DNA of 64,000 bases from Tetracentron sinense (taxonomy: Eukaryota > Streptophyta > Magnoliopsida > Trochodendrales > Trochodendraceae), in contig CM026566.1 in assembly GCA_015143295.1 (NCBI GenBank), positions 6,187,072 to 6,251,071 on the forward strand, in the 5' to 3' direction. The position numbers were made by a program, and so were the translations under genes. The notes beneath the pieces are model-generated. The model saw only the letters and a list, made by a program, of their open reading frames with translations. It was not told where the DNA came from and did no database searches. Of the stretch, positions 23,534 to 23,671 are shown one piece after another. Positions within the stretch are counted from its first letter, which is position 1, and every line of letters starts with the position of its first letter.

Positions 23534-23671
23534 CTGTGCATTGTAATTAACTATATCAGCGGGTTTCAGCAACATACATAGAGTATAGGTAACATGACAT
23601 ACAAGTGATTATACGTATACTTATAGCACTCATCATTTCATACTTGAACACTTTTAGAAATTCTCGCGTAC
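23534..23671 (-). other. Putative gag-protease intron, element A
   Basis: 138 bp on the minus strand, starting GTACGCGAG after GTGCAAG and ending AATGCACAG. Removing it joins SDDVVQ to DVLLVNECLAHVLIDTG in one frame. Read through, the interval contains stops. Elements B, C and D have an interval of 134-148 bp at the same codon. Splicing itself is inference. Confidence 0.6.

What the first reader, a model, noticed from the sequence alone, without database searches (positions are those of the whole stretch)
23534..23671. Shared spliceosomal-type intron between gag and protease in four chromovirus elements
Seen: in elements A (23534-23671), B (33941-34088), C (17483-17616) and D (51684-51819) the conserved gag end DDVVQ and the protease start LLVxECLAxVLIDTG are separated by 134-148 bp. 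The interval begins GTACGC (A, D; C lacks one G) or GTAAAC (B) after CAAG/CAAT and ends CAG or TAG. Removing it restores one gag-pol frame at the same codon; read through, it contains stops. Known: Ogre (Tat lineage) elements have an intron in their coding region, while typical Tekay gag-pol is continuous at this codon, as far as I know. Inference: these elements splice, perhaps to set the Gag to Gag-Pol ratio.
Basis: partly seen in the sequence, partly recalled or inferred. Interest (0 to 1): 0.88.

Follow-up and report, generated by a model that had tools for sequence, protein, structure and literature searches.

The report
Ancient intron inside plant retrotransposon gag-pol
Four related but long-diverged jumping genes (LTR retrotransposons) in this plant-like DNA carry what looks like a real, shared, removable intron exactly where the particle protein ends and the enzyme part begins, which would let splicing decide how much of each protein is made; no RNA evidence was available.

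Summary
Elements A (23534-23671), B (33941-34088), C (17483-17616) and D (51684-51819), all minus strand, have a 134-148 nt GT...AG interval between the gag end (DDVVQ) and the protease start (LLV..LIDTG). Of 163 relatives whose match reaches this codon, 132 run straight through by a loose rule.

Evidence for an intron: 66-73% AT against 42-59% in the flanks; a branch-point-like YTRAY motif 22-24 nt before the 3' end in 4 of 4 (47 of 20000 column permutations do as well); stops in all three frames of all four, no ATG in the pol frame before protease. Intronless relatives read GGT ACN at the codon, like the donor CAAG|GTACGC.

It is old: A and D differ by dS above 2, A and B by about 1, dN/dS 0.07-0.17 in pol, while LTR distances of A and D are 0.04 and 0.08. 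A-D form one clade among 130 sequences. So it survived many rounds of copying through RNA.

Most likely unspliced RNA makes Gag and serves as genome; spliced RNA makes Gag-Pol, as in Ogre, but in a chromovirus and at another place. Splicing itself is untested.

The parts
23534..23671 (-). Element A: putative phase-1 U2-type intron, 138 nt, CAAG|GTACGC...GCACAG|AC
23555..23559 (-). Element A: branch-point-like CTGAT, branch A at -23
23638..24996 (-). Element A: gag ORF (Retrotrans_gag, Ty3_capsid, zinc knuckle); its 3' end runs into the interval in a frame other than that of DDVVQ
21843..23528 (-). Element A: pol ORF starting LLVNECLAHVLIDTG; protease, reverse transcriptase, RNase H
20203..21372 (-). 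Element A: integrase C-terminal part with Tf2-1-like SH3 and a weak chromodomain match
   Evidence: Chromo 23.4 bits, cut-off 25.1; rve 20 bits, cut-off 32.6
25241..25252 (-). Element A: primer binding site TGGTATCAGAGC, complementary to tRNA-Met (recalled)
33941..34088 (-). Element B: putative intron, 148 nt, CAAT|GTAAAC...AGTTAG|GT
33963..33967 (-). Element B: branch-point-like TTGAT, branch A at -24
33002..33935 (-). Element B: protease and RT part of pol
   Evidence: tblastn of A pol
34117..35341 (-). Element B: gag
   Evidence: tblastn of A gag
17483..17616 (-). Element C: decayed copy of the interval, 134 nt; one G lost before GT
17503..17507 (-). Element C: branch-point-like CTGAT, branch A at -22
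15789..17479 (-). Element C: decayed pol
51684..51819 (-). Element D: putative intron, 136 nt, CAAG|GTACGC...ATACAG|GT; junction frames compatible on both sides
51705..51709 (-). Element D: branch-point-like TTGAT, branch A at -23
50044..51679 (-). Element D: pol
51854..53032 (-). Element D: gag

Best explanation
The interval is a U2-type spliceosomal intron of about 140 nt that interrupts the gag-pol reading frame of one chromovirus clade in phase 1 (inside a glycine codon in A and D) at the gag/protease boundary. Retained, it ends translation soon after Gag, and this RNA is also the genome. Spliced, it joins Gag to protease-RT-RNase H-integrase in one frame. Partial splicing thus sets Gag against Gag-Pol, as described for Ogre. 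The intron arose once, at a pre-existing CAA-GGT-ACN-like stretch, and has been kept through long replication because only unspliced RNA is copied. Shown: intron-like anatomy, shared ancestry of the interval in A, B and D, purifying selection on the exons, continuous relatives. Inferred: splicing, partial splicing, role in protein ratio, copying of unspliced RNA, single gain.
For: GT...AG at the codon where relatives are continuous. AT 66-73% against 42-47% (exon 1) and 54-59% (exon 2); U 33-43% against 15-27% in exon 1. YTRAY at -22 to -24 in 4 of 4; 47 of 20000 permutations as good. Stops in all frames, pol frame open only 4-21 nt before the interval end, no ATG there. 5' site matches 6-7 of 9 consensus positions. 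Interior homology: shuffles as good are 0 of 1000 (A-B), 5 (A-D), 1 (B-D), 11 (A-C). pol dN/dS 0.07-0.17 with dS about 1 (A-B) and above 2 (A-D); LTR distance 0.038 (A) and 0.081 (D). A-D clade support 1.0 in a tree of 130 tips. Intronless plant-like relatives have GGT ACA or GGT ACC at the codon.
Against: No RNA evidence. Only four copies, none intact around the junction. The branch-motif test was run after I had seen the block in the alignment, and the YTRAY consensus and distance are recalled. The 5' site scores are ordinary: within 200 nt of it 1 of 27, 6 of 28, 4 of 24 and 4 of 30 GT sites (A, B, C, D; itself included) score as well. Exon 2 has 32-37% U, hardly less than the intervals of A and D. 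B-C (384 of 1000) and C-D (58 of 1000) interiors show no clear homology. In the tree B covers 192 of 426 columns and C sits on a long branch.
Confidence: 0.8

Rival explanations
1. The interval is an untranslated spacer between two separately translated ORFs (internal entry or reinitiation at a non-ATG codon), as might be the case in Bianca, and the splice-like ends are coincidence.
For: Bianca (Ty1/copia) has two ORFs with a mean 172 bp gap and no mechanism stated in the passages I saw (PMC6317226). Element A's pol ORF as listed opens with TTG.
Against: No ATG in the pol frame between its last stop and protease in any of the four; in A the first pol ATG is codon 88, well past the LIDTG motif, and in B, C and D a stop comes first. 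Ends plus branch motif are found in 0.43% of random intervals.
Confidence: 0.08
2. An insertion (MITE-like or filler) inactivated gag-pol in a non-autonomous lineage that was mobilised in trans; the four copies share it by descent.
For: All four copies are now defective; the interval is AT-rich.
Against: Between intron-bearing lineages pol and gag stay under purifying selection, dN/dS 0.07-0.22 where a value could be computed, which a trans-mobilised lineage would not need. No terminal inverted repeats at 8 nt or more spanning the ends (D has one 10-nt inverted pair inside). No further copy of the interval in the window; the best other hits at E up to 1 are short.
Confidence: 0.06
3. Programmed frameshifting or stop readthrough across the interval makes Gag-Pol.
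For: Usual in other Ty3 and retroviral elements (recalled).
Against: All three frames carry 2-7 stops in each interval and the pol frame opens only 4-21 nt before its end.
Confidence: 0.01
4. The intron is real but plays no part in the Gag to Pol ratio: translated transcripts are spliced throughout, and the copied RNA comes from a separate pool that escapes splicing.
For: BARE keeps separate RNA pools for translation and copying (PMC3735527, passages).
Against: None from here; it cannot be tested without RNA.
Confidence: 0.05

Closest known systems
Ogre (Tat lineage, Ty3/gypsy)
   Same: An intron inside gag-pol, spliced in only part of the transcripts so that the whole polyprotein can be made (PMC6317226, passages).
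   Different: Ogre is a non-chromovirus; [quoted passage not shown] Here it lies between gag and protease and is 134-148 nt.
Tekay/Del chromoviruses
   Same: Domain order, tRNA-Met-type primer site, chromodomain-like C-terminus, same gag/protease junction motif (likeness to Tekay in part recalled).
   Different: Relatives found here are mostly continuous at this codon (132 of 163), and sugar-beet chromoviruses, Tekay families included, have one continuous gag-pol ORF (PMC3605345, passages).
BARE1 and EVADE (Ty1/copia)
   Same: Splicing near the gag end separates Gag from Pol expression.
   Different: There splicing destroys the pol frame and makes Gag-only RNA (passages); here splicing would create the Gag-Pol frame.
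CRR (a rice centromeric element; chromovirus by recall)
   Same: Spliced transcripts, as stated in PMC3735527 (passage).
   Different: CRR splicing removes rt and creates two ORFs, by that passage.
Bianca (Ty1/copia)
   Same: Two ORFs with a gap, mean 172 bp (passage).
   Different: Different superfamily; no intron stated in what I read.

Membership tests
Spliceosomal (U2-type) intron | GT start and AG end at the exon boundary | tested here: met
   4 of 4; A, B, D in matching phase, C one base off
Spliceosomal (U2-type) intron | Branch-point motif 18-40 nt before the 3' end | tested here: met
   YTRAY at -22 to -24 in 4 of 4; consensus and range recalled; test run after seeing the block
Spliceosomal (U2-type) intron | U/AT enrichment over exons, as expected in plants | tested here: met
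   AT 66-73% vs 42-59%; U clearly above exon 1, little above exon 2; expectation from PMC3735527 (passage)
Spliceosomal (U2-type) intron | Removed from RNA | not testable with these tools
   no transcript data
Tekay chromovirus | gag, protease, RT, RNase H, integrase in this order | tested here: met
   Pfam on element A; integrase core rve is below its cut-off
Tekay chromovirus | Chromodomain at the integrase end | tested here: inconclusive
   Chromo 23.4 bits, cut-off 25.1
Tekay chromovirus | tRNA-Met primer site | tested here: met
   TGGTATCAGAGC without mismatch at 25252 (A) and 56220 (beside D), minus strand; motif recalled
Tekay chromovirus | Falls with named Tekay elements in an RT tree | not tested
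   no named references at hand
Tekay chromovirus | Single continuous gag-pol ORF (usual, not strictly defining) | tested here: not met
Ogre | Non-chromovirus of the Tat lineage with an extra (archaeal-type) RNase H | tested here: inconclusive
   chromodomain-like and Tf2-1 SH3 matches speak against, Chromo below cut-off; extra RNase H not searched for specifically
Ogre | Intron between protease and RT | tested here: not met
   interval lies before protease

The most novel reading that the evidence does not exclude
A chromovirus clade gained, once and long ago, a true intron inside gag-pol at a Gly-Thr codon pair that is already a donor-like sequence in intronless relatives, and has used regulated intron retention ever since to serve three needs with one transcript (Gag, Gag-Pol, genome). 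This is an independent parallel to Ogre in another branch of Ty3/gypsy, and a case in which an intron has persisted through many reverse-transcription cycles that should have erased it.
Probability: 0.6. Interest if true: 0.72.

Novelty: new variant of a known kind. Interest (0 to 1): 0.62.

Why it matters
By the papers seen here, plant LTR elements generally lack introns and chromoviruses such as those of sugar beet encode Gag and Pol in one frame; how such single-frame elements make excess Gag is, to my knowledge, largely open. A clade that carries an intron at exactly this boundary makes the question testable by counting split reads. It would be a second, independent use of partial splicing for Gag-Pol in Ty3/gypsy elements, and it shows an intron surviving in a lineage that copies itself through RNA, which requires that unspliced RNA be exported and packaged.

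Tried and rejected

Viral contigs: two protein scans and one DNA pattern gave no relatives. Genome contigs: element A's pol alone gave none; an alignment gave 20 loci. Nine of the 20 gave a match to the first 140 pol residues, and L002, L003, L004 and L007 looked like plant elements with a readable junction; these four are continuous, and L003 and L004 look like one and the same element.

Origin by tandem duplication of exon sequence: interval ends were aligned with the opposite exon ends at three lengths; a few comparisons in D, A and B reach 8 to 45 of 500 shuffles, most do not, so no consistent signal. MITE origin: no terminal repeats. Rfam and tRNA scans of the window: nothing.

Two papers (Ogre splicing PMC2596294; EVADE PMC5580714) were not held; I know them only through citing passages.

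Ten paper searches listed no report that I could recognise of an intron at this place in a chromovirus; I judged by titles, abstract starts and passages of five papers (PMC7730604, PMC6317226, PMC12786077, PMC3735527, PMC3605345). One search listed 20 of its 40 papers. The library lacks most subscription journals.

Full report
What is there. The window is evidently plant DNA (the named relatives are plant proteins) with nested LTR retrotransposons, and it has one run of 100 Ns. Four elements on the minus strand show the junction in question. Element A is the best kept: gag ORF 24996-23638 (Retrotrans_gag, Ty3_capsid, zinc knuckle), pol ORF 23528-21843 (protease, RT, RNase H), then an integrase part with a Tf2-1-like SH3 domain and a weak chromodomain match, a TGGTATCAGAGC primer site at 25252 and an LTR pair 93% identical over 1439 aligned positions. 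Elements B and D have gag and pol; in C pol was found by tblastn and the gag end only by alignment.

The observation. In A and D a glycine codon would be split after its first base (CAAG|GT). B has CAAT|GT, in the same phase. C has lost the G. By frame arithmetic A, B and D fit at the junction and C does not. None is intact around it: the gag frame is open for only 12 (A), 9 (B), 35 (C) and 39 (D) codons before CAA, and in pol a stop follows at codon 77 (B), 15 (C) and 46 (D).

More than chance? A random interval of this length in the window, allowed 7 offsets, has GT...AG in 2.4% of 200000 draws and also a YTRAY motif 18-40 nt before the end in 0.43% (not matched for AT content). In the real intervals a YTGAT block stands at -22 to -24 in 4 of 4; its TGAT is the longest invariant run in the interior. 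Permuting the 117 ungapped interior columns gave an aligned YTRAY in that range in 47 of 20000 trials. I saw the block before running the test, and the consensus is recalled, so the figure is a guide only. Mean pairwise identity is 0.83 over the first six interval bases, 0.50 in the interior, and 0.63 and 0.73 in the 60 nt of exon on either side; the alignment mis-places C's last AG by one column, so its 3'-end figure (0.39) is not used. The 5' sites match 6 or 7 of 9 consensus positions, which is decent but not unusual: 1 of 27, 6 of 28, 4 of 24 and 4 of 30 GT sites within 200 nt, itself included, score as well. AT content is 66-73% against 42-47% in exon 1 and 54-59% in exon 2; U is 33-43% against 15-27% and 32-37%. 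Plant introns are expected to be more U-rich than exons (passage in PMC3735527).

Other ways to reach pol. All three frames of each interval hold 2-7 stops. The pol frame is open only 4-21 nt before the interval ends and holds no ATG there; in A the first pol ATG is codon 88, and in B, C and D a stop comes before any ATG. This nearly excludes frameshifting or readthrough and makes reinitiation unlikely. No inverted repeats bound the interval, and no further copy of it was found in the window.

Relatives. Protein searches brought 241 proteins. Of those, 163 have a protease match reaching the junction; 132 run straight from a gag end of type VVTGT into protease by a loose rule, 12 begin too near to tell, 19 are odd. 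The rule is loose both ways: at least one (P0226) is wrongly counted as continuous, and several of the 19 are continuous by eye. The first search listed the best 120 of 8000, so this is a sample, not a census. At DNA level, plant-like contigs in bacterial assemblies read CAA GGT ACA (L002), GAA GGT ACA (L003 and L004, which look the same) and TTC GGT ACC (L007) at the codon. The donor CAAG|GTACGC thus resembles a coding Gly-Thr stretch of intronless relatives, which suggests that the intron entered at a ready-made splice-like site. A test for tandem duplication as its source found nothing consistent.

Age and selection. Between A and D pol, dS exceeds 2 (saturated) with dN/dS 0.07-0.10; between A and B pol, dS is 0.83-1.17 with dN/dS 0.12-0.17; for gag of A and B, dS is 1.12-2.08 with dN/dS 0.22 (comparisons with C, and gag A-D, were too saturated for a value). 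LTR distances are 0.038 for A and 0.081 for D, the latter from a 588-nt pair that I take to be its LTR ends; B and C were not dated. So most divergence between A, B and D built up while the lineages were active. The interiors of A, B and D are homologous (0, 5 and 1 of 1000 dinucleotide shuffles as good for A-B, A-D, B-D; A-C 11, C-D 58, B-C 384). A tree of 130 sequences over 426 columns, mainly RT and RNase H, unites A-D with support 1.0, although B fills 192 columns and C sits on a long branch; the next branch (P0020, L001) has support 0.126. P0020 is continuous at the junction. One gain followed by long retention is the simplest history.

Mechanism. An intron that persists in an element that copies itself through RNA must be still present in the copied RNA. 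In the gag frame the first stop begins 7 (C) to 114 (A) nt into the interval, so unspliced RNA can give only Gag with a short tail. Spliced RNA would give Gag-Pol. This is the logic stated for Ogre, whose intron is removed from a subset of transcripts (passages of PMC6317226). BARE1 and EVADE use the reverse: splicing makes Gag-only RNA (passages). That these elements work so is inference; no RNA was seen.

Known or new. A 2025 review says that plant LTR elements generally lack introns, with Ogre and EVADE as notable exceptions (PMC12786077, passages). The BARE paper adds env splicing in the Bagy2 clade and CRR, in which rt is removed (PMC3735527, passages). Sugar-beet chromoviruses including Tekay families have one continuous ORF (PMC3605345, passages). 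A sunflower survey reports splicing in two Ty1/copia elements and no expressed Tekay element (PMC7730604, abstract and passages). Ten searches of the open library listed no intron at the gag/protease boundary of a chromovirus that I could recognise; most subscription papers are not held. I therefore call it a new variant of a known kind, probability about 0.8 that it is a real intron and about 0.6 for the full regulated-retention reading.

Limits. Four copies, none intact; no transcripts; host unknown; the host genome search did not complete (ten calls); the clade name rests on domain order, primer site and junction motif, not on a tree with named elements.

Noticed in passing
protein P0169 (Telopea speciosissima gene model): 26 residues rich in AT-type codons' amino acids sit between VVTG and the next GT at the same gag/protease codon, as if a short intron were read through; four further Telopea models (P0170, P0171, P0193, P0221) were flagged odd there, two (P0192, P0202) are continuous. 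Could be a second gain at the same site or a gene-model artefact.
   Followed up: partly
proteins P0124 (Musa) and P0126 (Quercus suber): Gag gene models change sequence and end at or next to the same Gly codon, as if GGT ACN were used as a cryptic donor in intronless relatives.
   Followed up: partly
protein P0062: A cluster of 1330 member sequences whose ORF starts only about 15 residues before protease; worth checking for a gag-pol gap.
   Followed up: no
loci L001-L004, L007: Plant-like Ty3/gypsy elements in contigs of bacterial genome assemblies (Streptomyces, Mycobacterium, Geminicoccus, Solirubrobacter, Labilibacter), most likely contamination.
   Followed up: partly
window 53653-54053 and 60024-60463: Tandem arrays with period near 46-55 nt, alike at two places of the window, the first between primer site and gag of element D.
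   Followed up: no
window 18372-18471: Run of 100 Ns, apparently inside the left LTR of element A (assembly gap).
   Followed up: partly
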